The notes: generated from the letters alone by a model not told the origin. A stretch of 64,000 nt of DNA from Denitrovibrio acetiphilus DSM 12809 (GCF_000025725.1 NC_013943.1:558001-622000); one strand, 5' to 3'. Counted from the stretch's first letter, positions 14,646-55,216 are shown. Numbers and translations: made by a program.

Positions 14646-14726
14646 TGAACAAATGATTAAAAATTTTATGTTTTTTGTGGAATTTATAAAGATTAGGATA
14701 TAAATTGTATTAGGAGAGGTTTGTAT

Positions 14727-14942: not shown

Positions 14943-15139
14943 TCCTGAATCTTTTGTTTGATGAAATCCTCCAGCATTTCAATATCGTTATAGAGTTCGT
15001 CAAGCAGGTATCCGGTTCCTTGCTTAATTGAAGGTGGCATTGTTGATTGATTCTCTCCGAACTCATTCATTACGTTCATAAGCATCCACACAACGCTTTT
15101 GTTTTTTTGGATAATCTTATTTGCGTCTTCTCTTGTCAT
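14939..15139 (-). CDS. Small helical protein downstream of traG
   Basis: A 66-residue, probably all-helical cytosolic protein. Its start overlaps the traG 3' end by 23 bp, so it is coupled to the traHG operon. No recognised family; it could be an accessory or regulatory factor of transfer. Confidence 0.5.
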   Translation of the reverse strand: MTREDANKIIQKNKSVVWMLMNVMNEFGENQSTMPPSIKQGTGYLLDELYNDIEMLEDFIKQKIQD

Positions 15140-18100: not shown

Positions 18101-18848
18101 ATTGTGAGCAGAACTTGTACATGACGTTTTCGGTAAACGTCGGGCTCATAAGCCTTGTGGAGATATTTGTATATGCGTCAGCGCACTCATATAAAACGCC
18201 TTCGGGATTAGCGTTGTCGTATATGACCGAGCTGAATACCCTGTAGTTAAGACTGAATGACTCAAGCAGGTTATTTGAAGTCCATATGTCTTTGTCAGTA
18301 ATATCGCCGTTTGCATATGCCTGACGAAAGCATTTCTCAATATAGTCATAAACTGATTTTGCCAGAAAATGATCATTCATATTGCCGATCTGCCCCATGG
18401 CGGATGAAGCGGCTAAAAGCTCGAAGCCGTCACCGAATCCTATATCGTTTGCTGACATTATTGGGCTTCCGGCTGTTTCAATTATATCTGTGAGCTCTCT
18501 TGATGCTGATGAAGTTACTGATGCTATCATTCCTGCACCGAGTGGGACACCGCCGACAGCTTCATACCTGTTTTTTACAGGGTCATAAATATGCATAGTA
18601 ACCGTCGGCACCATGAAGATGCTGTATAATGCCATCCCCCAGAAGAGCCGTTTTATCCAGACTGAATCATTCATCTTTGCACCAAATGCACGTTCCATGT
18701 TCATATGGAATGCAAATGCCGCCGATGCGAAAATCATGAGGATTGTGATCCAGCTTTTATAAGAGTTGCTGGAAAAGATTCCGGCCACCATCTTGAAGGC
18801 GTTGACTATAGAAGTGAAGTCGCCGTATACATAGAAATCAAACTCCAT
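15117..18848 (-). CDS. traG: TraG, mating-pair stabilisation/pilus assembly protein
   Basis: A 1243-residue protein with several hydrophobic segments in the first 450 residues (TraG N-terminal domain, pilus assembly) followed by a long hydrophilic region of S/G/D-rich repeats and helical stretches. In F-like systems the C-terminal part acts in mating-pair stabilisation and in entry-exclusion recognition by contacting TraS in the recipient. It is longer than F TraG (about 938), mainly in the C-terminal repetitive half. Its ATG overlaps the traH stop (TGATG). Confidence 0.88.
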   Translation of the reverse strand: MEFDFYVYGDFTSIVNAFKMVAGIFSSNSYKSWITILMIFASAAFAFHMNMERAFGAKMNDSVWIKRLFWGMALYSIFMVPTVTMHIYDPVKNRYEAVGGVPLGAGMIASVTSSASRELTDIIETAGSPIMSANDIGFGDGFELLAASSAMGQIGNMNDHFLAKSVYDYIEKCFRQAYANGDITDKDIWTSNNLLESFSLNYRVFSSVIYDNANPEGVLYECADAYTNISTRLMSPTFTENVMYKFCSQSGFNVSNTSEYQACKDKFTGLVDSFATDIGFSITLSNYVASAFIARQYLMGGVNAGTQNAIDIAKSMATAANTVAGGVADEYIPKLQGMIITILIATFIIVALFVYMAPVDAFKWYIGMWIWVIMWFVVDAILNVNVQAHAYEVFRDIRSTGVGLNSMFYTGSDTLKVLAMYSNARWISMSLASVISFGIIKMGGSAAFASMTSALGQQYRSSAAGVGSQLGTPGGQADFNSKLFDKASDLPSMTGLKTPDNLAVAQFNRSSDVGKHFESGSRIMEKYSNDSTSASQAMGAGDYAKNMEQIGHGAGALSAESATGVSIEGAHSATAQKRHGEMAGTAELLDNSKVSIDDYKEISKTSALDSKGRSEAAREMSDTLGLDYDTISKDINTKSGLEKHASYMNIKKLAENGGLNMSELFDKTTRSAKLSLNDSEADKLGLAGAGQYSVSWDDSGKFTYTDMRSGDYSQQNFESIDVKDSDGNIRTLIGATAEAKGDKLNISGTDENGNLISISGVGMVREGENGDASAEFTAISNQSKERATTSRMTFGEMNILQPDGSHTTLSGVSSETINDGLIIRGTDKDGNKVTMEGIGDISIGKDGVGLAEFSKVSIDKSENIYKSVVDHLNTVQKGSRVEDVDKTVYDRSRKYDGAFTAILDKESATEMAGQITGSGEYAKEADAQARAIAKDMSEIYKSKGVIAGTTYVGTGGLMNAQASLGLSFLGSGVKGSVSANTSVGIERKNTEKEEYDLNISLIKGMQKQAHTIATGETGKLDETLYNETLGTMYNDMATKLNNVSENTSKLQFGASAVFGEAWHTLSTDQVKDILNNPTTIIPDNKDSIENDLNTAIRQNDDKKPDIEIKSESSAENITAGISPLESHEHKTDINVSTQTQNDLATESNEISNAGYAQKDITSKNDIKPQQMDSIPTDEKKPQNTEESKKILNEKDDPISNYQNIQIIQNNPKDILNNSEFNIPINDLREEIPKETFNDKRRRK

Positions 18849-20209
18849 CAGTCATTACTCCTGTTTACTGTGAAGCTGTTTTGCTGAAGGGTGTCGTCGA
18901 TGACTTGTTTCATGTTGCCGTATCGCTCAAGGATCGCAAGCAGGTTTTCGGTATCGCTGATTGTGGCAAGATAGCTTTCTCTCGCCTCGCTCCCTTTGTC
19001 CGCTGTTTTCTTAAGGAGTTCATCAAGAGCGGCCGAAAGCTGCTTTGTGAGTTTGCCGTCACCGGAATCTACCAAGGCTTTATATTCCTCTATAGATGTT
19101 TTTGAATTGACCAGAATATTGCTGAAAATCGCAAAAGCATATCCATGCAAAGTAGGTTGGAGCATTGTGTCTCTGATTACTGCGACCTGATTGTCTCCGT
19201 ATAATGATGCTGTGTTTAGTGTGCTTTTAACAGGGTATGGAGTGATTCCTACAAAGTTCTTTTCCTCAGCAGAGAGAGAGGTGTTTTTATTGGTGGTTAT
19301 TTTATCTGAGATGCTTTGAAGCAGATTCTGCACCTCATCCGTCAGGTTGCTTCCGGAAGATTCCGCACAACCGGATGAGTATGATGATTTCGAAAGAGGC
19401 TTCCCTTCGATAAGTTTCTTATATGTGGCTTCATCGCATCCAGGGTAGTAAAACGCATTGATAGCATTGTCTGTGAGATTAACCTGAACATCACCTATCA
19501 AGGCTCTTATTTGCCGTATTTGGGTGGTGTTCATTCCGACCTTTGAGCCGATACGGTCAAGTATTGAGCCTGACTTTTTAAGCTCTTCTTTAAGTTCTGC
19601 TGACATGCCGGAATTATCCACTGCCTTTTTGAAGTTTGCACCTGGTTTGTCTTCTACATCTTTTTTTGCATCAGTGAAGAGGGTGTCCAGACCCTGAACC
19701 ATATTCTTTTGAAGCACGTCTACAGCCTGGTCCTCACGGCCGTGGATAAGATGGTTGGCTGAGACCACAAGCCCTTTGGCCGCTTTGCATTCGTCTATCT
19801 GGAGCCCGTTGAGGGCGTTTATTATGTTCTCGGCTCTGTCTTTGATGGCTGAACATGATGTGCAGAATTCATTCAGTGCCAGGTCAAAAGCTACATAAGG
19901 AGCAGCACGCAGGATTCTTTCCGCCTTGTCCACGAGATAGTCAGGATTTAGGAAACTGAAACCGCCCATGAAGATATCTATTCCGCCGCAACCGACGGAA
20001 AGTTTTGGCGGCGCAACAGTCATCAAATAGTCACTTTTTGTTTTTAGCCTGCCCTGAAACGACCCCATTGTTGCAAAACCACGCTCCTGAGATATATATA
20101 CTGATGCATTGGCGGAGCTGTTTGCGTCAAACCAGTCATCCACCCAGTTCGCATGAGCCAATGGTGTCATTATCAAAGCTATAAGGAGCACATTTATTGT
20201 TCGGAACAT
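18848..20209 (-). CDS. traH: TraH, F-type T4SS pilus assembly protein
   Basis: A 453-residue exported protein: signal peptide (cleavage near AHA-N), then conserved TraH features including the S-V-G-C-G-G-I-D block around residues 72-79 with G-G-F-S-F after it, and a C-terminal coiled-coil region. It assists pilus assembly in the outer-membrane/periplasm subassembly with TraF, TraU, TraW and TrbC. It starts an operon with traG and carries the shared regulon box upstream. Confidence 0.92.
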   Translation of the reverse strand: MFRTINVLLIALIMTPLAHANWVDDWFDANSSANASVYISQERGFATMGSFQGRLKTKSDYLMTVAPPKLSVGCGGIDIFMGGFSFLNPDYLVDKAERILRAAPYVAFDLALNEFCTSCSAIKDRAENIINALNGLQIDECKAAKGLVVSANHLIHGREDQAVDVLQKNMVQGLDTLFTDAKKDVEDKPGANFKKAVDNSGMSAELKEELKKSGSILDRIGSKVGMNTTQIRQIRALIGDVQVNLTDNAINAFYYPGCDEATYKKLIEGKPLSKSSYSSGCAESSGSNLTDEVQNLLQSISDKITTNKNTSLSAEEKNFVGITPYPVKSTLNTASLYGDNQVAVIRDTMLQPTLHGYAFAIFSNILVNSKTSIEEYKALVDSGDGKLTKQLSAALDELLKKTADKGSEARESYLATISDTENLLAILERYGNMKQVIDDTLQQNSFTVNRSND

Positions 20210-22188: not shown

Positions 22189-22683
22189 TCATAGTGTTTT
22201 CGAGTGGATTTTAGCAATAACTTCACACGCCTTAATTGTGCTGTCAGATCCATGGTGCGGCACTTTCAGATAGTTTGATATTTCATCAAGGCTTTTGCCT
22301 GTAGGAATAGTTTCTTTTGTTCCTGTACGTACAGCGTTAATAACTTTGTGGTTGAATATCAGTCCGCATTTGGAGTAAGCATCCTTCAGAAAGGTAAGGT
22401 CATATTCTGGAACAAATGACACTATCTCACACCCAGTTACGAACATATCAAATCTGGCGATTGCATCTTCTATAGATACACCATGCTCATCCAGCATCTC
22501 TTTGCTGATGCCTTCGATCTCAGTGAAAATCTCAGAGATATCTGAGTTGATTTTGATATATGCGTGAAACATCTCGTATGTCATAAGGTCAACGTCTGGC
22601 TTCAGGGCGCATATTTCTATAATCTCGCCTTTGCTTGGTGATATGCCGCTAGTCTTCATGTCAATATATACTTTCTGTGCCAT
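22189..22683 (-). CDS. DnaQ-like 3'-5' exonuclease fold protein, probably catalytically altered
   Basis: A 164-residue DEDDh-type exonuclease domain. Exo I reads Y-I-D-M-K-T-S-G where active enzymes have D-x-E-T-T-G, so the second catalytic acidic residue is replaced by Lys. Exo II keeps an Asp (V-P-E-Y-D-L-T-F-L) and Exo III keeps His and Asp (H-H-G-S-D). It may therefore be a non-cleaving nucleic-acid binder or weak enzyme. ATG 22683 is chosen because AAGGAGG lies five bases upstream. A palindrome like the one in the BREX promoter is 36 bp upstream, suggesting joint control by the WYL protein. Confidence 0.7.
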   Translation of the reverse strand: MAQKVYIDMKTSGISPSKGEIIEICALKPDVDLMTYEMFHAYIKINSDISEIFTEIEGISKEMLDEHGVSIEDAIARFDMFVTGCEIVSFVPEYDLTFLKDAYSKCGLIFNHKVINAVRTGTKETIPTGKSLDEISNYLKVPHHGSDSTIKACEVIAKIHSKTL

Positions 22684-22719
22684 CAGAGCCTCCTTGTTTC
22701 TGAATAATGGCATGCCTAA

Positions 22720-22736
22720 GCGTCAGTTGCTGTCGC
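22720..22736. promoter_or_regulatory. WYL-regulator palindrome, copy 1
   Basis: GCGTCAGTTGCTGTCGC, a near-palindrome abutting the WYL stop codon and upstream of the DnaQ-like gene. It matches GCGACAGTAGTTGTCGC at 23690-23706 in arm sequence and spacing. Confidence 0.55.
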
Positions 22737-23656
22737 TATTTCTCTTGTAAATCCAGAGAATTTCTCAGCAAGTCGGCAAAATAATTTTTCACAGCCTCTG
22801 GTGAGTTAATTTTTATGTACGGTAGCCATTGGAGGCAAAGCTTTGCAGATTCTATTAGTGAACCAGCTTGAAATTCAATTGTAATATCGCCATTGTCGTT
22901 CTCTTCTAATATCTGTTGAAAAGGAAAAAATTCTTTTCGTTTAATATATCCGGCCATAGGAGATTTGAGCAGGCATTTTACTTTTATTTTTTTATGGGGA
23001 TCAAAGAATATATTGTTTGCTTGAGATATTTCAGCATCAATCACGTCCGTTGCTATTTCAAATGTTTCGTTTGAAGACTTAATATTTTCCATAAGATCAA
23101 GCCCAAACTTCCTAAGAGAGTCTTGCTTATTGAGTGCTGCCAGATACCAAAAACCGTCGTTATAGATTAATCTGTAAGGTTTAACCTCGTAAGTTTTGTC
23201 ATTTTTGAGGTAATCGAATGTGATTACCTGCTTTTTAAGAATATAATTTTCCAATAATGTAAAGTTCTCGGCGACTTTATCAAAACCAACTGAGTCTGCT
23301 TTCATGAACTGGATGATATTCTGTCTGTTTGATGCGGAGATGATCTTTTTGCGAAGCTTAGTAAGCATTCCGGAGTATTCGTCCTGCAGGATGTTTTCCG
23401 CATAATCGAATAACCCTGACAGCACCGCTAGCTCATCTTGCTTTAAGTAGCTTTCATGTAGACCGTAATGTTCTGTCAGATACCATTGATGCTTTTCATC
23501 ACTGTAGCACACTCCTGGAAGATAGCTCATGTCAGAGAGATATCTTTGAGCTGTGCGTAGGCTTACTCCTAGTTCGTCAGCAACCATTGTTGATGTTACA
23601 TATCTGTTCTCATTGAGCAATTTTATCAGTTTAAGGGCTATGTATAACTTATTCAT
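22736..23656 (-). CDS. WYL-domain transcriptional regulator (BrxR-like role)
   Basis: A 306-residue regulator: N-terminal winged helix-turn-helix (about residues 5-60, with ADELGVSLRTAQRYL) and a central WYL domain (K-P-Y-R-L-I-Y-N-D-G-F-W-Y-L-A-A, about residues 150-165, then L-R-K-F-G-L-D) plus C-terminal extension. WYL proteins sense nucleic-acid ligands and repress phage-defence operons; BrxR/CapW regulators of BREX and CBASS have this architecture. It is divergent from the BREX operon with a palindromic site between. GAGG five bases before ATG 23656 sets the start; GTG 23662 is the alternative. Confidence 0.85.
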   Translation of the reverse strand: MNKLYIALKLIKLLNENRYVTSTMVADELGVSLRTAQRYLSDMSYLPGVCYSDEKHQWYLTEHYGLHESYLKQDELAVLSGLFDYAENILQDEYSGMLTKLRKKIISASNRQNIIQFMKADSVGFDKVAENFTLLENYILKKQVITFDYLKNDKTYEVKPYRLIYNDGFWYLAALNKQDSLRKFGLDLMENIKSSNETFEIATDVIDAEISQANNIFFDPHKKIKVKCLLKSPMAGYIKRKEFFPFQQILEENDNGDITIEFQAGSLIESAKLCLQWLPYIKINSPEAVKNYFADLLRNSLDLQEK

Positions 23657-23689
23657 TTTCACCTCACAGAACTAGAATAATTTTACCAT

Positions 23690-23706
23690 GCGACAGTAGT
23701 TGTCGC
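23690..23706. promoter_or_regulatory. WYL-regulator palindrome, copy 2 (BREX divergent promoter)
   Basis: GCGACA-GTAGT-TGTCGC, perfect 6-bp arms, 34 bp upstream of the WYL start and about 200 bp upstream of the first BREX operon gene. It is the probable operator for autoregulation. A TATAAT-like -10 for the BREX operon lies at 23848-23853 with no good -35, suggesting activator dependence or weak expression. Confidence 0.6.
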
Positions 23707-23904
23707 TTTGTTGTTTTATTTTGCCTTAAGAAGAGATGGTGGTACTATCAATAAAAGTACTATTTCAGCTTCGTAAATTCACTAGAGGCTTAATATGTAT
23801 ACTAGATTGACGAAGCGTTGCAAAAAGTGATATGTTAATTTTGGTTATATAATTATAGAAAAGGTTCGTAGTGTAAATAGCTAACGCGTGAGATAGGTAT
23901 TCAA

Positions 23905-25452
23905 ATGATTAATCTGAAAAATAAATATTATATAAAGTGCCCACACTGTGGTCTTAACATATTGAAAAAAGAGCTACTGAATCATCTAAATTATAACCAT
24001 CTTGAAATTAACAAGCTTCCATCAACACATAATCCGCACCAAGAGAAAGTCTATTCAAAAAATCTGGTTCAATCTGACTTGCAAGCATCGATAGAAACAA
24101 CACTTCTTTCTCATTTTAAAAATGGTTTTAGGGTCGAGTCTCCTATTGAATTGGCTAGACTTCGTCGTTTCGCTAACGAAGAATGTGGTTTAACATTAGA
24201 TTTGACAGATGACGAATTGAAAAATGTTATTAAAACCTTGGGAACTCTGTTTGAAGGGAAGGTTTATATCATTTCAGCAGAAACAGTAAAAAAAATTAAA
24301 TCTATTGTGGAGAAAACATTTTCTAATGGAACCGGCTTAATATTTTATAAACAGTTTTATGAATTAAATGAAAAGTGGTTATTTGATGGAAGTATTGTTT
24401 CATGCGATATGTTGAGAAGTGCTCTAGAAAATCAGTTCCCTAGATATTCTCATAGAAAGAACTACTTTACCAATAGTGATGCAAGTAAACCTGAACTTGA
24501 ATGGACTCTTAATGAAATTTCTAGGGTTTGGGGAGATGCAATATTACTTAACTATAATCAAATAGCTGAACGTTTACCATATATCCCAATAGAAAAAATT
24601 AAGTTTGCTTTGAGTCAGTCTAATGTTTTCATATGGAACAGTGTTGAAACTTATGCCCATTTAAATAAAATTACAATTAGCAAAAATGAGCGAACTCAAA
24701 TTTTTGAATATGTGAGTAAAGCTTGTTCAGATAATGGTTATGTGTCTATCAGTGATGTGCCACTAGCTGAAATCATAGTAAATAATGATGAACTATCTAT
24801 TACTGCAATCCACAATGCTATATACAATAGTTGTCTTATAAATGAATTTGATAGAAATGGAAAAATTATCGTATACAAAGGAGATACTGTTGACGCATTA
24901 CAAATAATTAAAGAATATTGTGAAGGGGTAGATAAGTGTTCTCTGGATGATTTAATTGGCTTTGAAAAAGAATTAACTGGTGAAGTTCATCGTTGGATTC
25001 CCATGGAAGCTGGTTACTCGATATTAGTAAGGGTAGAAAAAAATAACTTTGTTGCTGAAAAGTACGTTAATTTTGATTTGGCAGCCATAGATAATGCAAT
25101 CGATTTTTTCATAAAAGGTGACTACCTTCCGATTAGAGCATTTACCACATTTTCTTTGTTCCCTGACTGTGGGTACTCTTGGAACTTATTCCTTCTTGAG
25201 AGTTATTGCCGTCGCTTTAGCAAAAAATTTAGATTTGATGCTCTGTCAGTAAACAGTCGCAATGCTGGAGTAGTAATACGTAAATGTAATGGCTTAACTT
25301 ATGAAGAAATATTAGTTGATGCCGTTGTTAAATCAGATATTATACTTGAAAAGAATGCTATTGAAGAATTTTTATGTACCAACGGTTACATAGGTAGGCG
25401 TTCCTATTCGCAAATTGAGGAACTCATTCAGAAAGTACGATCAGTTCGTTAA
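23905..25452 (+). CDS. Zinc-finger protein of unknown function, first gene of the BREX-4 operon
   Basis: A 515-residue protein I do not recognise as a named family. Residues 9-33 form a C2H2-like zinc finger (C-P-H-C-G, then H-L-N-Y-N-H). The rest is mainly helical with alternating short beta pairs, suggesting repeated winged-helix units (about residues 80-350), and a mixed C-terminal domain after about 370. It lies on the same strand, six bases before brxP, with the same AT-rich base use, so it belongs to the BREX operon. It could help recognise DNA or a phage product, or substitute for missing BrxA/BrxB. That role is inferred only from position. Confidence 0.65.
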   Translation: MINLKNKYYIKCPHCGLNILKKELLNHLNYNHLEINKLPSTHNPHQEKVYSKNLVQSDLQASIETTLLSHFKNGFRVESPIELARLRRFANEECGLTLDLTDDELKNVIKTLGTLFEGKVYIISAETVKKIKSIVEKTFSNGTGLIFYKQFYELNEKWLFDGSIVSCDMLRSALENQFPRYSHRKNYFTNSDASKPELEWTLNEISRVWGDAILLNYNQIAERLPYIPIEKIKFALSQSNVFIWNSVETYAHLNKITISKNERTQIFEYVSKACSDNGYVSISDVPLAEIIVNNDELSITAIHNAIYNSCLINEFDRNGKIIVYKGDTVDALQIIKEYCEGVDKCSLDDLIGFEKELTGEVHRWIPMEAGYSILVRVEKNNFVAEKYVNFDLAAIDNAIDFFIKGDYLPIRAFTTFSLFPDCGYSWNLFLLESYCRRFSKKFRFDALSVNSRNAGVVIRKCNGLTYEEILVDAVVKSDIILEKNAIEEFLCTNGYIGRRSYSQIEELIQKVRSVR

Positions 25453-25457
25453 AGGAG

Positions 25458-27761
25458 ATGTTTAATTTGTATTCATATACATATAGTCAAAAAACGGGTG
25501 GAATCTTACTGAACTCTACTCCAACGGGGTTTTCCAAAGAACCTCGACCGGTTTATGCTGCCGAGCTAGACTTGTTAGGTTTTGATAAATTTTGGGAATA
25601 CGATAAACAGAACGATATCCCATACATGTGGGCAGAAGCTAATGCTTATTGGTATCGTGGTGTTTGTGTTGCTAAACTAAAAGGTGGAAATCTCTTTAAT
25701 GCTCCAGAAATAATAATCCCAGTAAATGACAATGGTGAGTCCATATTACCTGAGCCAAATGGTAAAGCACTTCAAGTGGTTGATGTTAATGCGATGGTAG
25801 AGTCAAACAGAGAAATGCTCGATATTATTGAGCAGTCCACGGTAAAAAAAATTATTTCAGTTTATACTAAATACAAAGACAAGCTAGATTTATTCCATGT
25901 TGCCTTTTCAGGAGGAAAAGATAGTGCTGTTTTGCTTGATTTGGTTAAAAAAGCTCTACCGTTAGGAAGCTTTGTTGTCGTGTTTGGCGATACTGGGATG
26001 GAATTTCCTGACACTTACGATGTTATAGACAAGACACGACAAATGTGTGAAGCAGATGGCATTCCTTTTTATATAGCCAAATCAAGCCTTGAGCCACAAG
26101 AGTCATGGGTGCTATTTGGTCCACCTTCAAGGGCACTTAGGTGGTGTTGTGGTGTACATAAAAGTGCTCCGCAAACATTGAAGCTAAGAGCGGTTACAGG
26201 GAAAAACGATTATACTGGCTTAGCATTTGTTGGAGTCCGTTCAGAAGAGAGCGCTAAACGCGCTGAGTATGATTACGAAAACTATAGTAAAAAACAAAGA
26301 GGGCAGTACAGTCACAACTCTATTCTAGAGTGGACTTCAGCAGAAGTGTGGTTATACTTATATGCAAATAATATCATGATAAACGAAGCCTATAAAAAAG
26401 GAAATGCTCGTGCTGGTTGTTTATTTTGCCCAATGTCTGTTAAAAAAGCAGACTTTGTTAAACAGCAAATCTATCCTAGAGAGATAAAGACCTACTTAGA
26501 TATAATCAAAAAATCAAATGGTAGGGATTTTGGTGGAAATTCATATCTCGCTGATGGCGGTTGGGTTTCACGACGCAGTGGTCGCGATTTAATAGACAAT
26601 GTGATGAATTGTTCAGAAACATTAAAGGATGGAATGTTGACAATAAAAGTTACTTCTCCTAGAAGTGACTGGCGTGAATGGATTAAAACTTTAGGTAATT
26701 TCGAAGATATACCTTTTACTATTGAGCAACAAAGTAATAATTATTTGGTTAAATTACCTGAATCGTACATAAATAAAAATCCCACATTTAGAAAACTATT
26801 CAAACAAGTTTTTCGAAAATCTGCATATTGTGTTAAATGTGGAGTGTGCGAATCAAATTGTAATTCAGGTCGCATAACTTTCGACAATGAGTTAAAAATA
26901 ACTAATTGCGAACACTGTCTTAAGTGTCACGATATAGTAGATGGCTGCCTTGCCTATAACTCATTGAGAATACCAACAGAGGAGAAAGCAATGTCAATAA
27001 ATTGTTTTGATTCAGTATTGCCAAAAAATGATTGGTTTAACCGTTTTTTTAATGAAAAGAACGATTTTTGGAATGATCATGGGTTGGGACCTAATCAATT
27101 AAAGACCTTTAAGCGCTTTCTTAAAGATGCAGGCTTGACTGAAAAAAATAATTATACAGCTTTAGCTGAACAAATAGCCGCATTAGGCTGGGAAACTAAT
27201 ACCGCTTGGGGCATTCTATTAATTAATCTGGCCACAGATAATCCGCAAATACGCTGGTATATATCAAACCTTGAAATAGGAATGAATTATCCTCGTGAAA
27301 CTGTAATATCAATGTTGCTAGAATCTAACAGCAGTAATAATGTTGTTAAATTTGTTTATAGTGCGTTTGGGAAACTTATGGAATTACCGCTTGGTGCTAC
27401 TCTTCGGTTTGGCTATGTAACAAATGAGGGAAATATTGCCCGCACTAAATGCTCTATTTCAGACTTGAGAGTAATTCTGTATGGGCTGTTTAAGTTTGCA
27501 GAAAAATGTAATAACTATAAAGAGTTTACGTTAGCTTCTCTTATCAGTAACGGTATAGATCGCGATGGTATAAGCCCAACAAGAATTTTTGGACTTGATC
27601 GAGAAGACGTAACACCAATGTTACTTGGTCTTTCAACAAAATACCCAGAATTTATTACTGTAAGCTTTACTCATGACTTAGAAAAAATAACTCTCGCTGA
27701 TTATAAAACGTCTGCAGATGTAATTGAACTTTTTAGTGAGGATAGCGGAAATGAGCAATAA
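25458..27761 (+). CDS. brxP: BrxP, PAPS-reductase-like protein of type 4 BREX
   Basis: A 767-residue protein. A PAPS-reductase/ATP-pyrophosphatase domain has the P-loop S-G-G-K-D-S (151-156) and a conserved R-W-C-C-G-V-H-K (228-235), with Cys pairs at 321/324. Next is a ferredoxin-like cluster with eight Cys in two groups (458, 461, 464, 468 and 484, 487, 490, 497). The C-terminal 260 residues resemble DUF4007. DndC uses such a domain to install phosphorothioate sulphur in DNA, so BrxP may replace the usual PglX methylase. The ATG at 25458 directly abuts AAAGGAG; TTG 25467, nine bases on, is probably the real start. Followed by brxC with overlap. Confidence 0.9.
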   Translation: MFNLYSYTYSQKTGGILLNSTPTGFSKEPRPVYAAELDLLGFDKFWEYDKQNDIPYMWAEANAYWYRGVCVAKLKGGNLFNAPEIIIPVNDNGESILPEPNGKALQVVDVNAMVESNREMLDIIEQSTVKKIISVYTKYKDKLDLFHVAFSGGKDSAVLLDLVKKALPLGSFVVVFGDTGMEFPDTYDVIDKTRQMCEADGIPFYIAKSSLEPQESWVLFGPPSRALRWCCGVHKSAPQTLKLRAVTGKNDYTGLAFVGVRSEESAKRAEYDYENYSKKQRGQYSHNSILEWTSAEVWLYLYANNIMINEAYKKGNARAGCLFCPMSVKKADFVKQQIYPREIKTYLDIIKKSNGRDFGGNSYLADGGWVSRRSGRDLIDNVMNCSETLKDGMLTIKVTSPRSDWREWIKTLGNFEDIPFTIEQQSNNYLVKLPESYINKNPTFRKLFKQVFRKSAYCVKCGVCESNCNSGRITFDNELKITNCEHCLKCHDIVDGCLAYNSLRIPTEEKAMSINCFDSVLPKNDWFNRFFNEKNDFWNDHGLGPNQLKTFKRFLKDAGLTEKNNYTALAEQIAALGWETNTAWGILLINLATDNPQIRWYISNLEIGMNYPRETVISMLLESNSSNNVVKFVYSAFGKLMELPLGATLRFGYVTNEGNIARTKCSISDLRVILYGLFKFAEKCNNYKEFTLASLISNGIDRDGISPTRIFGLDREDVTPMLLGLSTKYPEFITVSFTHDLEKITLADYKTSADVIELFSEDSGNEQ

Positions 27762-30700
27762 ATATTTTGAATATTTCGAAATTGATGAAGACTATTTTCC
27801 GCAAGTCAATGATTCAACAATTCAAGAGAAACCTGATTGTTGGAAAAAGACTTTTCCTCATCAAACATTCATAGACATGCTAAAAAACATGGAGCGTTGT
27901 CTAGCAAGACAAGAAAAACGCTCCCTTTGGATAGAAGGAGCATACGGAACGGGTAAATCTCAGTGTGCATATACTTTAAAAAAGCTCCTTGAAGTTCCGG
28001 AAGATGATTTTAGGAAATATTGGAACGGATTTAAGGCTCTTGAAAACCAAAAGGATTTGATGGAAAAGCTGATTGGGCATAAGCATAATGGCATAGTTAC
28101 TGCTTACAAATATGCTTCTGGCGGCATCAACTCACCTCGTGACTTGTTTTTGGCAATCCAAGAAGAGGTAAAGAATGCTTTAGTTGCAAATAAACTTCAC
28201 ACTGGAGAAAATACCCTTAAAGAAAGTGTTATTGCATGGATAGAAGAACCATCTCATAAAAGGATTTTCGATATTCTACTAGAAAAACCTGAATGGAAAG
28301 CTACGTTCACGCAATCATCTGCCGATGATGTTTTGGATGCGCTTTGTAAAAACAGTGAAGTAAAGCAGCTTATGGAGAATATATTCCGACTGGCAGACAA
28401 AGAAGGCATTACAGCATTGAACATTGATGCAAACAGGCTCATTGCTTGGTTATCAGATGTAATGGATAAAAATAATGTGAAAATTGTTCTAATATGGGAT
28501 GAATTTTCGGATTATTTTAAAAATAATCGTGATAGTCTTTCAGAATTCCAGAAAATTGCAGAACTAGTTAATTCTAAACCATTCTTTTTTGTTGTTGTGA
28601 CGCACGAATCGGGTCAGCTTTTTACTACTGCTGATACGACATGGACAAAAGTTCGTGACCGCTTTGTATCTTCCCAAATCTCTTTACCGGACAACATTGC
28701 ATTTGAGCTCATTGGTCATGCTTTAAATGTTAAAAATGCAGCTAAAGAACCTTGGGCTAAATTGGCTGATGACTTGAATGGTCGTGTCAGCTCATCACGT
28801 TCAGCGGTTATGAAAGTTACAAAAATATCAGAACCTCATGTAATGAAAGACATTATGCCTCTTCATCCAATGGCTGCATTGCTTCTAAAAAATATTGCTT
28901 CAGCGTTTAAATCAAACCAAAGAAGTATGTTTGACTTTATAAAATCATCCAACATAGATGATGTTAAAGCTTTTCAATGGTTCATTCAAAACACAGGTCC
29001 TTACGATGATCATCCACTTCTTACTGTAGATATGCTTTGGAACTTCTTTTATGAGAAAGGCCGTAATTCCCTCAGTTCTGATATACGAGTTATATTAGAC
29101 TCGTTTCAGCATCAACAAGATTTGCGAGATGATGAAAAGACTGTTTTAAAAGCAGTACTCATAATGCAAGCGATTGACCAGCGGTTAGGAGGTACAATTG
29201 ATCTTTTTAAAGCTACGGAACAAAATATAAGCTACATATTTGAAGGCATTGACTCAGGACTTGATGTGGCATGCAAGAATATCGCTAAACAACTTGTTTC
29301 AAAGGGCATTTTAGTCAATACCCCTATTTCTGGTGGAAGATATGTTTATTCTGCGGCCGTACTAGCAGGTGACCAGGTAAAAATTGATGATTATAAGAAG
29401 GACATACGTAAAGGGACAAATACTGCCAAGCTTGTTACAGAAGGAGGGCTTGCTTCAGTACTTTCATTAACTCCAGCATTAAAGTTGCGTTACGAGATTG
29501 AACCTGGTTCAGGGAAGATTACTCCTGTTACCATAAATGATTTTACTCGAACGGTAAATATACTACGTGATAAAACAAGCAATTGGAAATTTCACGCAGT
29601 TATAGCGTTCGCTAAAGATGACTCTGAGGCTGCAAGTTTTCGTAAACAAATTAAAGATGTTATCTCTGACAAGCAATATGAAAATATTGTTTTTATAGAT
29701 GCACTTTCGACTCCTTTAGGTTTGGAAAGTTTTGACCAGTACGTGGATTATTCTGCTATGGCGATGTATTATAACGGGAATAACAACTCTGAATCTAAGG
29801 AAAATACCGACAAGGCAAAAAGAGTATTAGACCAAGATTGGAAGAACCGCATTTATAATGGACAATTCATAGTGTACACATACTCTAATCAAGAGGGTGA
29901 AAAATTTGGTAATGCTCAAGGTGTTGCAAGTATTCTTCAGTCTATTGTTACTAGACGTTTTCCATTTGCTTTTGACTTCATCAAAGGGCTAACTGAAAAT
30001 CAACTTAAACTGACTCCAGCTATAAAACAAAGTGCAAAGTCTGGTATTACTGAAAATACGAGCGGAGTTGTTGTTGGAATAGAAAAGCACATTTTGCCTA
30101 CCGTTTGGAAAACTGAGAAATACTGGGATGTTCAGACCTCTCTTCCAATTTCTAAGATTAAAGTAGAAACTGACAAATTGATAAATAAGGCTTTCGATAG
30201 AGATGGCCAGGTACCCATTGGTGAAATATATGATTTTTTAGAAAGCCAGTATGGTTTTGCCCAATGTAATTTGTCTGCATTTATAGCAGGCTTCTTGTTA
30301 AAAGAGTACAGTATTGAACCATTCCGGTATAGTGATTCTACTGGCAGTCATGAAACAATGACGCATGATAAACTTGCTGAGATGATAGGGAATTATGTTG
30401 GTAAATTACCGAAGCCAACATATGTTGTGAAAATGACCCCTGAAGAAATGGCTTTTTATGAGTTGACTGAGAAAGCTTGGAATATTCCATCCAACACATG
30501 TTCTTCCTCTGGACAAGCAGTACGTATGTTAAGCTCTAGGATGAAAGCCTTACAGTTGCCAGTATGGTGCTTATCTGAGGTTGATGAAAATGGAATATTT
30601 AATGTTGTCCAAAAGTATATTGATTTTGTGCAAAAAGAAGGCAACGAAGCCCACAAATTAGCTATTGAAATAGGGAAATTCTCGATAAGTAATAAAAATC

Positions 30701-31881
30701 TTGCTGAACAATTGTCTATACTTATCACTAGCGAAAATTGTCAAAAGGGTATGCGAAAGTTTCTCGCTTCATTTGAAAGTGGGAAAATTTTAGCCCTAGC
30801 AAAAGAGATAATTGTGGATGAAAATGTTGTTCTTGCAGATATTCGTGAGTTATTTGATGTAAAACATTCTTGCCTTTGGGATCAAGGGACTGGTGAATAT
30901 GAAATCCGCAAGTTGCTAATTGATTATAGTATTGTCAAAGAAACAAACACTATACTTAATAGTAACGCTCATTCACTGTCTGAAGCATACAAAGAGTGGC
31001 GTGATAAGTTAAGGTTTATTGGTATTTCTTATGAAATCTTAAAATCAAAATTCCCTTCAATTACACATATTTTGGATGTTTTGCTAAAGATATGTCAACA
31101 AACTGAATTATTGACAGAACAACGCAAAACATTTTATTCAGAGATCAAGGCACATGGTGCAGAAATCCGTGAATTGTTAAATAACGACAAAAAGATATTT
31201 GCTGAGGTCTATTTACCGTACCTTGAAGATTTAAGTGATAACGATATCAGTGAAATAAAGAGTAAATTAACAACAGGAATGTACGAGTTACCAAAAACTG
31301 ATTGTAACACTAAAGTTAAATCTGTAGCAGAAGAATTTCGTAAAGGACAACTCAAGACTAAGCTTCATAATCTATGGAAAGCTAAAACTGAAACTAAAGA
31401 TCCCTACGAGTGGTCTTACCGTTATAAAGTACCAATTTTATGTATGGTTGAAGAAAAAGAGTTTGGAACTGCAAAAAAAGCATTCGAAACTATAAGAAGA
31501 AGTTCTCCTAGTGATATTGAAATTAAAGATTCTCTAGACTTTCTTGAATCAACGAATCTTTTTAAGGTTTTGTCAGACGAAAAATCAAGGCAAGAAGTAT
31601 TTGAGAGAGAAATTATTGGTGAGTATATTAGCCTTCTTTCCAGTGAGAGAGTATTAGGGGCTCTTGAACGCATGTCTATTGAGCCATATGATTGGTATAT
31701 TAATCCTTCAGTAAAGAACACAATCAGAAATCTTGCTGAGGCGGAATATAATGCAGGCGGAAGTGACAAGGCCTTAAGCAAGATTGATAGTATGGACGAT
31801 GCGCAGTTAAAACAATATCTTAAACGACTAGTCAAAGACAATATGACTGTGGGAGTTGAGATTATTGCAAGCGAGGGTTAA
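27751..31881 (+). CDS. brxC: BrxC/PglY-like large P-loop ATPase
   Basis: A 1376-residue ATPase of the BREX BrxC/PglY family. Walker A is G-A-Y-G-T-G-K-S (63-70), Walker B around residue 248 (V-L-I-W-D-E-F-S-D). The rest is a long helical region. All BREX types carry such an ATPase; it assembles with the modification and PglZ components and is required for defence and modification. ATG 27751 overlaps the brxP stop by 11 bp and begins M-S-N-K-Y-F-E-Y-F; the frame is open further upstream but inside brxP. Confidence 0.92.
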   Translation: MSNKYFEYFEIDEDYFPQVNDSTIQEKPDCWKKTFPHQTFIDMLKNMERCLARQEKRSLWIEGAYGTGKSQCAYTLKKLLEVPEDDFRKYWNGFKALENQKDLMEKLIGHKHNGIVTAYKYASGGINSPRDLFLAIQEEVKNALVANKLHTGENTLKESVIAWIEEPSHKRIFDILLEKPEWKATFTQSSADDVLDALCKNSEVKQLMENIFRLADKEGITALNIDANRLIAWLSDVMDKNNVKIVLIWDEFSDYFKNNRDSLSEFQKIAELVNSKPFFFVVVTHESGQLFTTADTTWTKVRDRFVSSQISLPDNIAFELIGHALNVKNAAKEPWAKLADDLNGRVSSSRSAVMKVTKISEPHVMKDIMPLHPMAALLLKNIASAFKSNQRSMFDFIKSSNIDDVKAFQWFIQNTGPYDDHPLLTVDMLWNFFYEKGRNSLSSDIRVILDSFQHQQDLRDDEKTVLKAVLIMQAIDQRLGGTIDLFKATEQNISYIFEGIDSGLDVACKNIAKQLVSKGILVNTPISGGRYVYSAAVLAGDQVKIDDYKKDIRKGTNTAKLVTEGGLASVLSLTPALKLRYEIEPGSGKITPVTINDFTRTVNILRDKTSNWKFHAVIAFAKDDSEAASFRKQIKDVISDKQYENIVFIDALSTPLGLESFDQYVDYSAMAMYYNGNNNSESKENTDKAKRVLDQDWKNRIYNGQFIVYTYSNQEGEKFGNAQGVASILQSIVTRRFPFAFDFIKGLTENQLKLTPAIKQSAKSGITENTSGVVVGIEKHILPTVWKTEKYWDVQTSLPISKIKVETDKLINKAFDRDGQVPIGEIYDFLESQYGFAQCNLSAFIAGFLLKEYSIEPFRYSDSTGSHETMTHDKLAEMIGNYVGKLPKPTYVVKMTPEEMAFYELTEKAWNIPSNTCSSSGQAVRMLSSRMKALQLPVWCLSEVDENGIFNVVQKYIDFVQKEGNEAHKLAIEIGKFSISNKNLAEQLSILITSENCQKGMRKFLASFESGKILALAKEIIVDENVVLADIRELFDVKHSCLWDQGTGEYEIRKLLIDYSIVKETNTILNSNAHSLSEAYKEWRDKLRFIGISYEILKSKFPSITHILDVLLKICQQTELLTEQRKTFYSEIKAHGAEIRELLNNDKKIFAEVYLPYLEDLSDNDISEIKSKLTTGMYELPKTDCNTKVKSVAEEFRKGQLKTKLHNLWKAKTETKDPYEWSYRYKVPILCMVEEKEFGTAKKAFETIRRSSPSDIEIKDSLDFLESTNLFKVLSDEKSRQEVFEREIIGEYISLLSSERVLGALERMSIEPYDWYINPSVKNTIRNLAEAEYNAGGSDKALSKIDSMDDAQLKQYLKRLVKDNMTVGVEIIASEG

Positions 31882-31888
31882 TTTTTAT

Positions 31889-34138
31889 ATGTTAAGTAGA
31901 GCTGTCGGTAGATTCTTAAAGTCTACAACATATTATCCTTTTTTTATCACAGTTGGTGATGAAAACTATTGTGACATTAAAAACAAACTATCAAATCTTG
32001 GATTACATTTTATTAAATTAAGTGACTATTGCAAAGAAGATGATAAGTTACCGGATTTAGATGCTCTATACGAACAGCTTAAAACTACCAATAAAATGTT
32101 AGGTGTTAATACAATTGCTATTCTTGGGCTTGGGGAGTATTTAGCTCTTTGCGGAAAAAGTGAAGTAAATAGAGTTTTGACACATTTACAAGCAATGAAT
32201 ACATCTAAAACAAAAGTTGTATTGCTACTACGTGGTGTATCCTCGTATGTAAATAACTTGTGTTCAGATATCCGCTTTGATAGCAGTAGATTTTTTTGTG
32301 CGGGTAGCACTGATTGTAATTTATCTATAACAGTGAGTAAGCTTTCTACTTCTTATGGAGTCTTGAAAGGATTCAAGGCTTTGCTTAATGAATTAGAAAA
32401 TGGGAAACGTGAAAATATTATAGTCAATACAAACATTGATTTAAGTCAGTCGCTTTTTACTAAGCGTGAGAGATCAAATGCTTATGACGAAATTCTGTTT
32501 ATTCTGGAAAACTTCAGTTTAGCAGAGACTTGTGGGACTAATGAATATTGGTCTGAGCTTTTAAAGGTATTGACAGCGAACGACAATTCCCTTGAGGCTG
32601 TTCTTGAAAAATACGGTTTAACTGTTGATCTTGAATTGAACATACATGATAAAATATTTGGTAGAGAATATCGAAATTGGTTGTTTTTTATTGCTCTAAA
32701 AATCAATATAGATAGATTGTCGAACAGTTATTTGAGACTTGTGTTAGAGAATACTCATGACTACAAAAATCTAAAACTGAATTTACTTAATTATATTATT
32801 AATATATCACATACTGATAAAAAACATAATACTCTCTATTTAGAGAGAAAAGACCTTATTAGAGACTTCCCAGAGCCCGATATTGCTGAATTCATTATAA
32901 GAAACCGCAAGAATCTTTCAGAAAGTATTTACAAATTGACGGATAATACCATAGTTGAGCGTGAAGAGATAATAGCTTGGGTATCACAAAATGGTATTAT
33001 TGAAGAAATCGCTGAAATATATCCCGTGCTTAATACCTATTTGAAAAAGTTTGTATTTAATTGTGGAGATTTATCTGATTTGCTTACGAATTATTTCAGT
33101 AATTACAAAGAGCAAAAAGTCTCTAACAAGCTAAATAAAGAGTTTATTGATCAAATTGAGGTGCTTGCTGAAAATCGAATTTATAATCGTTTACCTACGC
33201 GCAACGAAATAATTGATAAGTTAGAGAAATCTGACTCACATCTATATTGGCTTGATGCACTTGGCGTGGAGTATCTTTCATTTTTTTCAGAAATGGCGAG
33301 AGAATATGGACTTTACATATCTATAAAAATTGCACGTGCTGAACTTCCGACAATAACTTCGATAAATAGAAATTTTTTCGACGACTGGCAAGGAAATAGC
33401 AAAGAAAAAGACAACAAACTAGATGATATCAAACATAGCGATGAAGGTGGTTATAATTACGATAACAACGTTTTACCAATACATCTTGCAAAAGAATTAG
33501 AAATAATTGAGACGGTTATCAAAAAAGCAGCGACAGCACTAAAGCTTAGAAAATTCAAACGTTTTTTAGTAGTTAGTGATCATGGTGCTTCTCGCCTAGC
33601 TGTATTAATGAAGAAAGAAGAAAAGTACGAAACTAATACAAAAGGGGAACATTCAGGGCGTTGTTGCAAGTTATTTGAACCTTACGATCTACCTTTTGCT
33701 GCCGAAGAAAACGGCTATCTTGTGCTTGCGGATTACGGAAGATTCAAAGGTAGCAGAGCTGCAAATGTTGAAGTGCATGGCGGTGCTGCACTAGAAGAAG
33801 TGATTGTCCCTATTATTGAATTAACACTAAAAGATGATAGCGGTGTGGTAGTAGAATTAGATGACAGCAAACTTATAACTGTAGACTATAGAACTGGTAC
33901 AGAAATAATCTTATTCATAAACTATTCACAGGACGAGGTATCTGTGATATTTAACAACAAAAGATACTTTGCGGAACAGATTGATAATAATCACTATAAG
34001 GTTGAGCTCACAGATATGAAACGTGCTGGTGAATATCTTGTTGATGTTTACAGTAAAGATAATTTGATTGCTACTATAAGCTTTAAAGCACATGGTAAAA
34101 GTGGCAAAATTATTGACGAATTTAATGACTTATTTTAA
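31889..34138 (+). CDS. pglZ: PglZ, alkaline-phosphatase-superfamily BREX protein
   Basis: A 749-residue protein whose C-terminal half carries the PglZ domain: metal-site motif around residue 454 (Y-W-L-D-A-L-G), S-D-H-G at about 564, and the strongly conserved H-G-G-A-A-L-E-E-V-I-V-P near 629. PglZ is the hallmark gene of BREX; it is a predicted metallo-phosphodiesterase/nuclease. The start at ATG 31889 has GAGGG upstream and lies seven bases after brxC. The last 120 residues form a beta-rich C-terminal domain. Confidence 0.93.
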   Translation: MLSRAVGRFLKSTTYYPFFITVGDENYCDIKNKLSNLGLHFIKLSDYCKEDDKLPDLDALYEQLKTTNKMLGVNTIAILGLGEYLALCGKSEVNRVLTHLQAMNTSKTKVVLLLRGVSSYVNNLCSDIRFDSSRFFCAGSTDCNLSITVSKLSTSYGVLKGFKALLNELENGKRENIIVNTNIDLSQSLFTKRERSNAYDEILFILENFSLAETCGTNEYWSELLKVLTANDNSLEAVLEKYGLTVDLELNIHDKIFGREYRNWLFFIALKINIDRLSNSYLRLVLENTHDYKNLKLNLLNYIINISHTDKKHNTLYLERKDLIRDFPEPDIAEFIIRNRKNLSESIYKLTDNTIVEREEIIAWVSQNGIIEEIAEIYPVLNTYLKKFVFNCGDLSDLLTNYFSNYKEQKVSNKLNKEFIDQIEVLAENRIYNRLPTRNEIIDKLEKSDSHLYWLDALGVEYLSFFSEMAREYGLYISIKIARAELPTITSINRNFFDDWQGNSKEKDNKLDDIKHSDEGGYNYDNNVLPIHLAKELEIIETVIKKAATALKLRKFKRFLVVSDHGASRLAVLMKKEEKYETNTKGEHSGRCCKLFEPYDLPFAAEENGYLVLADYGRFKGSRAANVEVHGGAALEEVIVPIIELTLKDDSGVVVELDDSKLITVDYRTGTEIILFINYSQDEVSVIFNNKRYFAEQIDNNHYKVELTDMKRAGEYLVDVYSKDNLIATISFKAHGKSGKIIDEFNDLF

Positions 34139-34149
34139 AGGAAAGATTA

Positions 34150-35592
34150 ATGACTGATAAACTTAGAAATTGTTTCGACGAAATGGTCGTATTCAAAGAC
34201 CTTAAAAAGAATAATTTTTTTTCATCTCTTAATCTGCCTTCTTTTATGCGAGACTGGTTACTTAAAAAATTTGAGGATGATAATGGGCAGTTTGAAACAG
34301 AAGAACTGATTCGGTTTGTTCGCACATACCTTCCAGGTAAAGATGGTTGGACAGCAATTAAGGACCGTATAATTAAAGAAAATGAAAGAGTCAAATTTCT
34401 TGCAAAAATATCATCGGACATTGCCATTAAAACTGGCGAAGTTTCATTCTCTCTTCCTGATTTTGGTTTGACAAGTAAAGATACTATTATAGAAGATAAT
34501 GTTTGGAATGACTGTAAAAATGAATTAGTTCGCGGTCGAGAAACGTGGGGAATGGTTGAACTAGGATACCGAATGGCTGAACCAGAATTAAAACTAACAG
34601 GTAAAATCAAGCTGACAAGTTTTAAGTCTTTTTGCCCCTATACTATAGATCTCGAATACTATAAAGATGCACGCCGAGAGTTTGAAACATCCGAATGGTT
34701 AGATGTCCTTCTCGGTGCTGTGGATTATAATGCGAGTGGGTACCTTGGAGATGAAGAGCAGAAACTGACAATGCTGACCCGTCTTCTTCCTTTTGTTGAG
34801 AAACGTTTGAATCTTATAGAACTTGCACCAAAAGGGACAGGTAAATCATATCTCTTTGGTCGTGTGAGCCGTTTTGGATGGTTATCTTCTGGTGGAGTAA
34901 TGAGCCGTGCAAAGATGTTTTACGATCAAAATAAACGAACAGAAGGTTTAGTTTCTGGGAACGATTTTGTTGTTCTAGATGAAGTTCAGACTATTTCGTT
35001 TACTGATGTTGACGAAATGAGAGCAGCTTTAAAAGGCTATCTTGAATCAGGTGTTTTCACCGTTGGTAACTATGAAGGCAAAGCAGATTCCGGAGTCATC
35101 CTTTGTGGAAATATCAAAAAAGAAACTATGGATAGCGATGGTTTTAGTAGCATGTTTGAAGAATTACCGGCAATCTTTCACGAATCAGCACTCATTGAAA
35201 GATTCCATGGGTTCATAAAAGGATGGAATATTCCTAGAATGAATGATGATCTCAAAATATCAGGTTGGGCCTTAAACTCAGAATATTTTTGTTCAATATT
35301 ACACGAATTACGTGAAGATTTAAGCTACCGTGCTATAGTTGATGAACTTATTCATGTGTCTGAAGCTGCTGACACCCGTGATACTGAAGCTGTAAAGCGT
35401 ATTGCAACTGCATATTTGAAGTTACTTTTTCCTCATGTCCGTGATGCATCTGATATATCAGCAAGTGAGTTTAAAAGGTACTGCCTTGATAGAGCACGTA
35501 AAATGCGTGATACTATTAAATATCAGCTCGGACTATTAGATATTGAATACAGAGGTAAAGACATTCCTACATTTAGTGTTAGAGGAGATTAA
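34150..35592 (+). CDS. brxL: BrxL-like AAA+ protein lacking the Lon protease domain
   Basis: A 480-residue AAA+ ATPase matching the N-terminal and central part of BrxL: Walker A A-P-K-G-T-G-K-S (about 226-233), Walker B F-V-V-L-D-E-V-Q (about 273-280), and downstream ring residues. Type 1 BrxL is about 680 residues with a C-terminal Lon-like domain; here the protein ends soon after the ATPase lid, as described for the shorter BrxL of type 4 systems. It probably forms a DNA-threading ring. An AAAGGAAAGA site precedes the ATG; pglZ ends 11 bp earlier. Confidence 0.9.
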   Translation: MTDKLRNCFDEMVVFKDLKKNNFFSSLNLPSFMRDWLLKKFEDDNGQFETEELIRFVRTYLPGKDGWTAIKDRIIKENERVKFLAKISSDIAIKTGEVSFSLPDFGLTSKDTIIEDNVWNDCKNELVRGRETWGMVELGYRMAEPELKLTGKIKLTSFKSFCPYTIDLEYYKDARREFETSEWLDVLLGAVDYNASGYLGDEEQKLTMLTRLLPFVEKRLNLIELAPKGTGKSYLFGRVSRFGWLSSGGVMSRAKMFYDQNKRTEGLVSGNDFVVLDEVQTISFTDVDEMRAALKGYLESGVFTVGNYEGKADSGVILCGNIKKETMDSDGFSSMFEELPAIFHESALIERFHGFIKGWNIPRMNDDLKISGWALNSEYFCSILHELREDLSYRAIVDELIHVSEAADTRDTEAVKRIATAYLKLLFPHVRDASDISASEFKRYCLDRARKMRDTIKYQLGLLDIEYRGKDIPTFSVRGD

Positions 35593-35596
35593 GAAC

Positions 35597-35797
35597 GTGG
35601 AAGACAAAACATGTTATGTGTGCTCAAAAACAATAAATGAAAAAGATGAAATAGGAGTGAATAAAAAGCTTTTGGGAAGAAATGTGGTGAGGTTTTATTG
35701 TTATGACTGTTTGGCTGAAAATTTTGAAATTACCACAGAAGAACTTTATGCTAAGATTGAGGAATATAAGTCTCAAGGCTGTAGTCTTTTTGGCTGA
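35597..35797 (+). CDS. Small CxxC zinc protein at the end of the BREX-4 operon
   Basis: A 66-residue protein starting at GTG 35597, with AGGAG at 35583-35587, four bases after the brxL stop. It has two Cys pairs (C-Y-V-C near residue 6 and C-Y-D-C near 40) forming a probable zinc ribbon, followed by an acidic helix. An ATG-initiated reading from 35543 overlaps brxL and lacks a ribosome site. Unknown function; position suggests a BREX accessory factor. Confidence 0.6.
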   Translation: MEDKTCYVCSKTINEKDEIGVNKKLLGRNVVRFYCYDCLAENFEITTEELYAKIEEYKSQGCSLFG

Positions 35798-41989: not shown

Positions 41990-41991
41990 TA

Positions 41992-55175: not shown

Positions 55176-55191
55176 GATGACACTGCTCTTG

Positions 55192-55216
55192 ATATATAAC
55201 CACACTGGTTATATAT
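55192..55216. promoter_or_regulatory. HigA operator candidate in the higBA/traD divergent region
   Basis: ATATATAACC-ACACT-GGTTATATAT, perfect 10-bp arms. It lies seven bases upstream of the higB start and 16 bases upstream of the traD start, so the HigA repressor could also affect the coupling protein. Confidence 0.65.

What the first reader, a model, noticed from the sequence alone, without database searches (positions are those of the whole stretch)
22189..35797. Complete type 4 BREX system on a conjugative element, with PAPS-reductase chemistry in place of a methylase
The order brxP-brxC-pglZ-brxL on one strand, all intact with overlaps or short gaps, is the defining set of the rare type 4 BREX class. 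BrxP joins a PAPS-reductase/ATP-pyrophosphatase domain (S-G-G-K-D-S), an eight-Cys ferredoxin-like cluster and a DUF4007-like C-terminal domain. Related DndC proteins install sulphur in DNA, so the host genome may carry phosphorothioate marks made by a BREX system rather than the usual N6-methyladenine. Type 4 is the least studied BREX class, and this one carries extra operon genes at both ends.
Basis: partly seen in the sequence, partly recalled or inferred. Interest (0 to 1): 0.9.

Follow-up and report, generated by a model that had tools for sequence, protein, structure and literature searches.

The report
Phage-defence operon with unnamed DNA-binding partner
A mobile element in the bacterium Denitrovibrio acetiphilus carries a complete known phage-defence operon (type 4 BREX, a class reported to mark its own DNA with sulphur instead of methyl groups), and its first gene encodes a conserved DNA-binding-type protein that no searched family library describes and that also turns up, distantly, in another sulphur-linked defence system.

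Summary
A co-directional run brxP-brxC-pglZ-brxL (25458-35592) gives full-length matches to type 4 BREX profiles, with catalytic motifs intact. It lies inside a 76.6-kb element bounded by 23-bp repeats at a tRNA-Pro gene, next to an integrase and with F-type conjugation genes.

PT was not tested in this host.

What looks new is the first operon gene (23905-25452, 515 aa). It has no Pfam, NCBIfam or PADLOC hit. Its ~450-residue core sits upstream of brxP in all 14 brxP-bearing loci found (13 directly, one with one gene between), codiverges with the BREX core (Mantel r 0.96), and carries swappable N-terminal heads (C2H2 finger, Cro-type HTH, integrase-SAM-like, sigma-70 region 4). A winged helix is modelled at residues 190-257. 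A distant homologous family (hhalign 99.5%, E 4.8e-23) heads 5 of 16 PbeABCD-type operons. I read it as a DNA-recognition or regulatory subunit (inferred). Only 7 of 13 readable type 4 loci in one Bacillota sample carry it: a lineage-specific variant.

The parts
22189..22713 (-). DEDD-type 3'-5' exonuclease, 174 aa, second gene of the divergent pair
   Evidence: Pfam RNase_T 48.7 bits; PADLOC DEDDh. Link to BREX is by neighbourhood only.
22736..23662 (-). HTH-WYL-WCX regulator, 308 aa, BrxR-like architecture, divergent from the operon
   Evidence: Pfam WYL and WCX above cut-off, HTH_11 below cut-off; a 43% identical WYL gene lies beside a broken orf515 remnant in a genome of the same family (L047)
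23690..23706 (.). Candidate operator: perfect palindrome GCGACA-N5-TGTCGC 28 bp 5' of the WYL start
   Evidence: a palindrome of the same 6-5-6 form (different sequence) lies 22 bp 5' of the WYL start in L047. Suggestive only.
23905..25452 (+). orf515: first operon gene, N-terminal C2H2 finger (residues 12-32) plus conserved ~450-residue core with at least one winged helix; unnamed family
   Evidence: no Pfam, NCBIfam or PADLOC hit at E <= 1e-3; upstream of brxP in 13 further loci; codivergence r 0.96; model and fold searches
25458..27761 (+). brxP: PAPS-reductase/ATP-pyrophosphatase, eight-Cys Fe-S-like region, DUF4007/SspB-like C-terminus
27754..31881 (+). brxC: AAA+ ATPase (SspC-like); start refined from TTG 27724 to ATG 27754
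   Evidence: PDLC02485 3317 bits; weaker SspC matches
31889..34138 (+). pglZ: BREX-4 PglZ; start refined from TTG 31856
   Evidence: NF033445 612.8 bits
34150..35592 (+). brxL: AAA+ ATPase of the short (480 aa) form
35597..35797 (+). Small CxxC...CxxC putative zinc-finger protein, 66 aa
   Evidence: homologues 3' of brxL in L052, L054, L055, L077, L080 and L136, and between brxP and brxC in L074
41159..41993 (-). IS (IS4/5-type transposase in two ORFs, 27-bp inverted ends) splitting a neighbouring gene, not part of BREX
6992..20209 (.). Conjugation genes left of BREX: TrbI/TraB-like, TraC, TraU (+ strand), TraG, TraH (- strand)
47792..55205 (-). Conjugation genes right of BREX: TrbC F-type, TraN, TraD-type coupling protein

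Best explanation
A complete type 4 BREX operon carried as cargo on an integrative conjugative-type element. SHOWN by sequence: the six-gene order orf515-brxP-brxC-pglZ-brxL-small zinc finger, intact motifs, element ends. INFERRED from published relatives: a housekeeping cysteine desulfurase supplies sulphur; BrxP (PAPS-reductase fold, Fe-S-like region) with its DUF4007 DNA-binding end and the BrxC ATPase put phosphorothioates at chosen sites; PglZ (a nuclease in type 1 BREX) and BrxL act on unmarked phage DNA. INFERRED here: orf515 is a lineage-specific non-enzymatic DNA-binding subunit whose constant core docks with the BREX machine while its exchangeable head helps choose or sense DNA. The WYL protein is a BrxR-like regulator of the divergent promoters.
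For: Profile matches and motifs. PT synthesis by brxPCZL stated in PMC11931770 and PMC12839542. Three DndA-profile cysteine desulfurases elsewhere in the genome, none in the operon. orf515: 14 loci with the core upstream of brxP, 13 directly adjacent and one with a single gene between; distance correlation with BrxP, BrxC and PglZ 0.96-0.97, the same as core against core; differing N-terminal heads by Pfam and a head shared at 40-46% identity with a protein of different C-terminus in the same slot of another type 4 locus (L080); residues 190-257 modelled as a winged helix (Z 9.4 to a Z-alpha domain, rmsd 1.9 over 60); homologous family heading PbeA/PbeC operons. Element: 23-bp repeat at the tRNA-Pro end and at 622,646, adjacent integrases.
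Against: No modification or phage data for this host. Six of 13 readable type 4 loci in the Bacillota sample lack orf515, so it cannot be needed for PT in general. The orf515 model is of middling quality (mean pLDDT 65, pTM 0.31) and its C-terminal half is unresolved (mean 48). N-terminal HTH and sigma-4 heads could equally mean a transcription regulator. No relaxase was identified and none of the TrwC family occurs in the genome, so transfer is not shown.
Confidence: 0.7

Rival explanations
1. orf515 is only a transcription regulator of the operon, its varied HTH, sigma-4 or finger heads reading the local promoter; it takes no part in marking or restriction.
For: First gene of the operon; heads are typical of DNA-binding regulators; in L077 the same slot holds a full sigma-70-like protein.
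Against: A divergent WYL regulator is already present here; proteins of 500-1200 residues with long conserved cores are large for an autoregulator; the core codiverges with BrxP, BrxC and PglZ, as a complex subunit would, though any stable operon gene could do the same.
Confidence: 0.35
2. The system is a type 4 BREX that does not make phosphorothioates in this host (silent, or BrxP does other chemistry).
For: No modification data; no cysteine desulfurase in the operon, whereas the relative L052 has an SspA/DndA-type one at its end.
Against: All motifs intact; desulfurase is absent from 44% of known type 4 taxa and thought to be replaced by housekeeping enzymes (PMC12839542); three candidates in the genome.
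Confidence: 0.15
3. The similarity between orf515 and the PbeA-linked proteins is a shallow likeness of repeated winged helices, not common descent of one functional unit.
For: Winged helices are common and repeats inflate scores; in L099 and L100 single-sequence matches are partial and repeated.
Against: hhalign gives one alignment of 428 columns, 99.5%, E 4.8e-23; L097 alone aligns over profile positions 31-451; both groups share a sigma-70 region 4 upstream of the core and sit in first position of a defence operon.
Confidence: 0.2

Closest known systems
Type 4 BREX (brxPCZL), PADLOC/NCBIfam definitions and PMC12839542
   Same: Gene set, order, BrxP fusion of PAPS-reductase, Fe-S-like region and DUF4007, BREX-4 PglZ, short BrxL, small zinc-finger gene after brxL
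   Different: A conserved upstream gene (orf515) not listed among the type 4 components in the main text of PMC12839542; no operon-borne cysteine desulfurase
SspBCD phosphorothioation system
   Same: BrxC matches SspC profiles, BrxP matches SspD and carries the SspB-like DUF4007 (PMC12839542)
   Different: Has PglZ and BrxL instead of SspE or SspFGH
DndCDEA-PbeABCD (CxC ABC-ATPase systems)
   Same: Some PbeA/PbeC operons are headed by a distant homologue of orf515
   Different: Different ATPase (DndD/CxC type) and effector (HKD nuclease-helicase); these loci are not BREX
BrxR (HTH-WYL-WCX) regulators of type 1 BREX, PMC9122589
   Same: Domain order and position upstream of BREX genes, also known from ICE-borne BREX
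   Different: Here divergent from a type 4 operon, followed by a DEDD exonuclease; binding not tested

Membership tests
Type 4 BREX | brxP, brxC, pglZ (type 4) and brxL present, intact and co-directional | tested here: met
Type 4 BREX | No BrxX/PglX methyltransferase in the operon | tested here: met
   none of the operon proteins has its main match to a methyltransferase family; BrxP has only a marginal MTase_II hit (16.9 bits)
Type 4 BREX | PglZ above curated BREX_PglZ_4 cut-off | tested here: met
   612.8 bits against 140
DNA phosphorothioation systems | PAPS-reductase-type sulfurtransferase with intact SGGKDS P-loop | tested here: met
DNA phosphorothioation systems | Sulphur present in host DNA backbone | not testable with these tools
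   needs LC-MS or PT-seq
DNA phosphorothioation systems | Cysteine desulfurase available | tested here: met
   three DndA-profile matches in the genome, outside the operon
Integrative conjugative element | Integrase and flanking direct repeats at a tRNA gene | tested here: met
   tRNA-Pro 545,965-546,038; 23-bp repeats at 546,017 and 622,646; integrases at 546,172 and 622,789
Integrative conjugative element | Type IV secretion genes and coupling protein | tested here: met
Integrative conjugative element | Relaxase | tested here: inconclusive
   no TrwC-family relaxase in the genome; other relaxase families not searched across the element
Tandem winged-helix DNA-binding proteins (orf515) | Repeated winged-helix folds along the core | tested here: inconclusive
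   one domain (190-257) well matched; SelB tandem winged helices only weakly over 57-314 (Z 7.4, rmsd 13); C-terminal half low confidence
BrxR-type WYL regulator | HTH-WYL-WCX architecture upstream of BREX | tested here: met
   (HTH_11 below its cut-off); DNA binding not tested

The most novel reading that the evidence does not exclude
orf515 belongs to an unrecognised superfamily of exchangeable-head DNA-recognition subunits shared by type 4 BREX and CxC/PbeABCD defence systems. In each, the core plugs into the machine and the swappable head (finger, HTH, integrase-SAM-like, sigma-4) sets which DNA is marked or attacked, so that target choice changes by head exchange.
Probability: 0.3. Interest if true: 0.75.

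Novelty: new variant of a known kind. Interest (0 to 1): 0.5.

Why it matters
How type 4 BREX chooses its DNA sites is, as far as I could find, unknown. A conserved, unannotated first gene with interchangeable DNA-binding heads gives a direct candidate for that role. Its distant relatives in PbeABCD-type operons suggest that two separately described sulphur-linked defence systems share a component. The host is a cultured type strain with a finished genome, so PT marks and the role of orf515 can be tested there or after moving the operon to a laboratory strain.

Tried and rejected
Reading the primary BREX-4 phosphorothioate paper (not held), so I cannot exclude that it shows orf515 in a figure or supplement; supplements of PMC12839542 were not readable here. 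PDB sequence search with the orf515 profile: only a de novo design (E 0.005) and one E 0.9 hit, both discounted. DNA similarity of the operon region and protein search of orf515 in plasmids: no match. PADLOC BrxP as a genome-wide marker: rejected because it rings on ferredoxin and PAPS-reductase families; BREX_PglZ_4 used instead. Separate model of the orf515 C-terminal half: mean pLDDT 48, not interpretable. Considered and rejected: the WYL and exonuclease genes as operon members (opposite strand); orf515 as an obligate type 4 component (6 of 13 readable loci in the sample lack it); orf515 as an enzyme (no catalytic motif seen by eye; only ten columns, and no catalytic-looking set, invariant across the deep alignment).

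Full report
What was checked. The window is G000:C1:558001-622000 of a single 3,222,077-bp contig. That is the published size of the one-chromosome genome of Denitrovibrio acetiphilus N2460T (PMC3035293), an obligately anaerobic nitrate reducer of the Deferribacterota. The claimed genes are present and intact.

The BREX core. BrxP (25458-27761) matches PADLOC BrxP over nearly its whole length (1069.9 bits), Pfam PAPS_reduct, and the separate PADLOC model of the BrxP C-terminus at 523-758. It keeps SGGKDS and an eight-cysteine ferredoxin-like motif, both conserved in six homologues. BrxC gives 3317 bits to PADLOC BrxC and weaker matches to SspC; PglZ gives 612.8 bits to NCBIfam BREX_PglZ_4 (cut-off 140); BrxL is the short form. 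Genes overlap or are a few bases apart, after moving the BrxC start to 27754, PglZ to 31889 and the last small gene to 35597. This is type 4 BREX by every feature that could be tested.

What the class does. Nothing here measures PT in this host. The operon has no cysteine desulfurase, although one relative carries an SspA/DndA-type enzyme after its zinc-finger gene (L052). PMC12839542 finds desulfurase in only 56% of type 4 taxa and invokes housekeeping enzymes. The host has three DndA-profile matches elsewhere.

The mobile element. F-type conjugation genes flank BREX on both sides. A tRNA-Pro gene at 545,965-546,038 is followed by an integrase gene. The 23-bp sequence GGTTCAAATCCTTTCACCCCGAT, the tRNA 3' end plus one base, recurs at 622,646 and, as 22 bp, at 645,888, with a second integrase just past 622,646. 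So the window lies wholly inside a 76.6-kb integrated element, with a second shorter element in tandem. No TrwC-type relaxase was found, so present mobility is open. BREX on ICEs is well known for other BREX types (PMC9122589, PMC11580459).

The unexpected part: orf515. The first gene of the operon (23905-25452, 5 nt from brxP) has no hit in Pfam, NCBIfam or PADLOC at E <= 1e-3. A scan of GTDB genomes returned five relatives, each immediately before brxP. A viral-contig relative, relatives from a 398-genome Bacillota sample down to 16% identity and a faecal 'bacteriophage' scaffold sit the same way: 14 loci in all, 13 adjacent to brxP and one with a single gene between (L054). Copies without brxP are a broken remnant in a genome of the same family (L047), a truncated orphan (L096) and the PbeA-linked relatives described below. 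Across 11 loci, distances of the orf515 core correlate with those of BrxP, BrxC and PglZ at 0.96-0.97 (Mantel p 0.0005), as tightly as the core genes correlate with each other (0.95-0.97). It is therefore a stable operon component, not a chance neighbour.

Its spread is limited. In the same Bacillota sample BREX_PglZ_4 occurs in 14 genomes. Of 13 loci with readable upstream DNA, 7 carry the orf515 core (two of these seeded the search). One has a HARE-HTH protein in that slot (L080), one a sigma-70-like protein (L077) and four have neither. It marks a lineage-specific form of type 4 BREX.

Architecture. Only the ~450-residue C-terminal core is constant. N-termini differ: C2H2 finger (window), Cro-type HTH (L002), integrase SAM-like (L053 by Pfam; a related 73-residue stretch links it to L031, which in turn resembles the heads of L003-L006 and L050), sigma-70 region 4 (L051, L054, L055). 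L080 shares the L003-type head at 40-46% identity although the rest of the protein differs, which indicates head exchange. The AlphaFold2 model (mean pLDDT 65) is dominated by helix-turn-helix-like units. Residues 190-257 match winged helices well (Z 9.4, rmsd 1.9 over 60 residues to a Z-alpha domain), and tandem winged-helix proteins such as SelB rank high but weakly. The C-terminal half is unresolved.

A link to another system. A broader profile finds distant relatives (L097-L100) that head operons whose next genes are PADLOC PbeA and PbeC (scanned on L097; PbeA also placed next to them in G187 and G229). Profile-profile comparison gives 99.5% probability, E 4.8e-23 over 428 columns, and both groups can carry a sigma-70 region 4 before the core. 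Five of 16 full-length PbeA loci inspected have such a protein (L097-L100 and L131); because four of these were found through orf515 itself, the fraction is an upper estimate. PbeABCD was described as a PT-dependent defence (PMC6459918) and later as a CxC ABC-ATPase system that also occurs without PT genes (PMC10853773). In the passages read, the main text of neither PMC12839542 nor PMC10853773 describes this protein.

Mechanism. Shown: gene content, order, motifs, conservation, element ends. Inferred from relatives: BrxP, BrxC and the DUF4007 end write PT, and PglZ and BrxL restrict. Inferred here: orf515 provides extra DNA recognition through its head and docks by its core. The main rival is a transcription regulator. 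The divergent WYL gene, with a palindrome 28 bp before its start that has a counterpart of the same form in L047, is the better candidate for that job.

Verdict. The finding is real and correctly classed; its claimed novelty (PT in place of methylation) is already in the literature. The new element is the conserved head gene and its relation to PbeABCD-linked proteins.

Noticed in passing
window 39000-43554: A gene of unknown family is split by an IS4/5-type insertion sequence (41159-41993, 27-bp inverted ends, likely CTAG target duplication); the reading frames on the two sides are in register.
   Followed up: partly
window 37132-63118: Further defence or counter-defence genes on the same element: ArdC-like antirestriction protein (37132-37992), ApeA HEPN protein (59429-60820), AbiEii nucleotidyltransferase toxin (62249-63118), AAA_14/DUF4143 ATPase (60880-62187).
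   Followed up: no
G000:C1:622646-645909 (L049, L056): A second integrated element with its own integrase lies in tandem right after the first, ended by a third copy of the tRNA-Pro 3' repeat.
   Followed up: partly
L047 (G023:C1:1303000-1322000): A genome of the same family keeps a WYL gene, an ADP-ribosylglycohydrolase gene and an interrupted orf515 remnant with a transposase-like ORF beside it, but no brxP: traces of a lost or decayed BREX-4 locus.
   Followed up: partly
L127, L128, L130, L134: PbeA/PbeC operons directly follow genes that look by eye like Ssp parts (DUF4007-like, large ATPase, desulfurase or PAPS-type genes), suggesting Ssp-Pbe hybrids.
   Followed up: no
L031 and L136: BREX-4 operons with orf515 relatives lie on contigs classed as viral (IMG/VR) or deposited as 'Bacteriophage sp.' (MT835511.1); whether these are true phages was not checked.
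   Followed up: no
L077:12627-14108 and L075:18301-19317: Type 4 loci without orf515 have sigma-70-like proteins beside the BREX genes (full sigma-70 domains in L077; only a weak region 1.1-like match in L075).
   Followed up: partly
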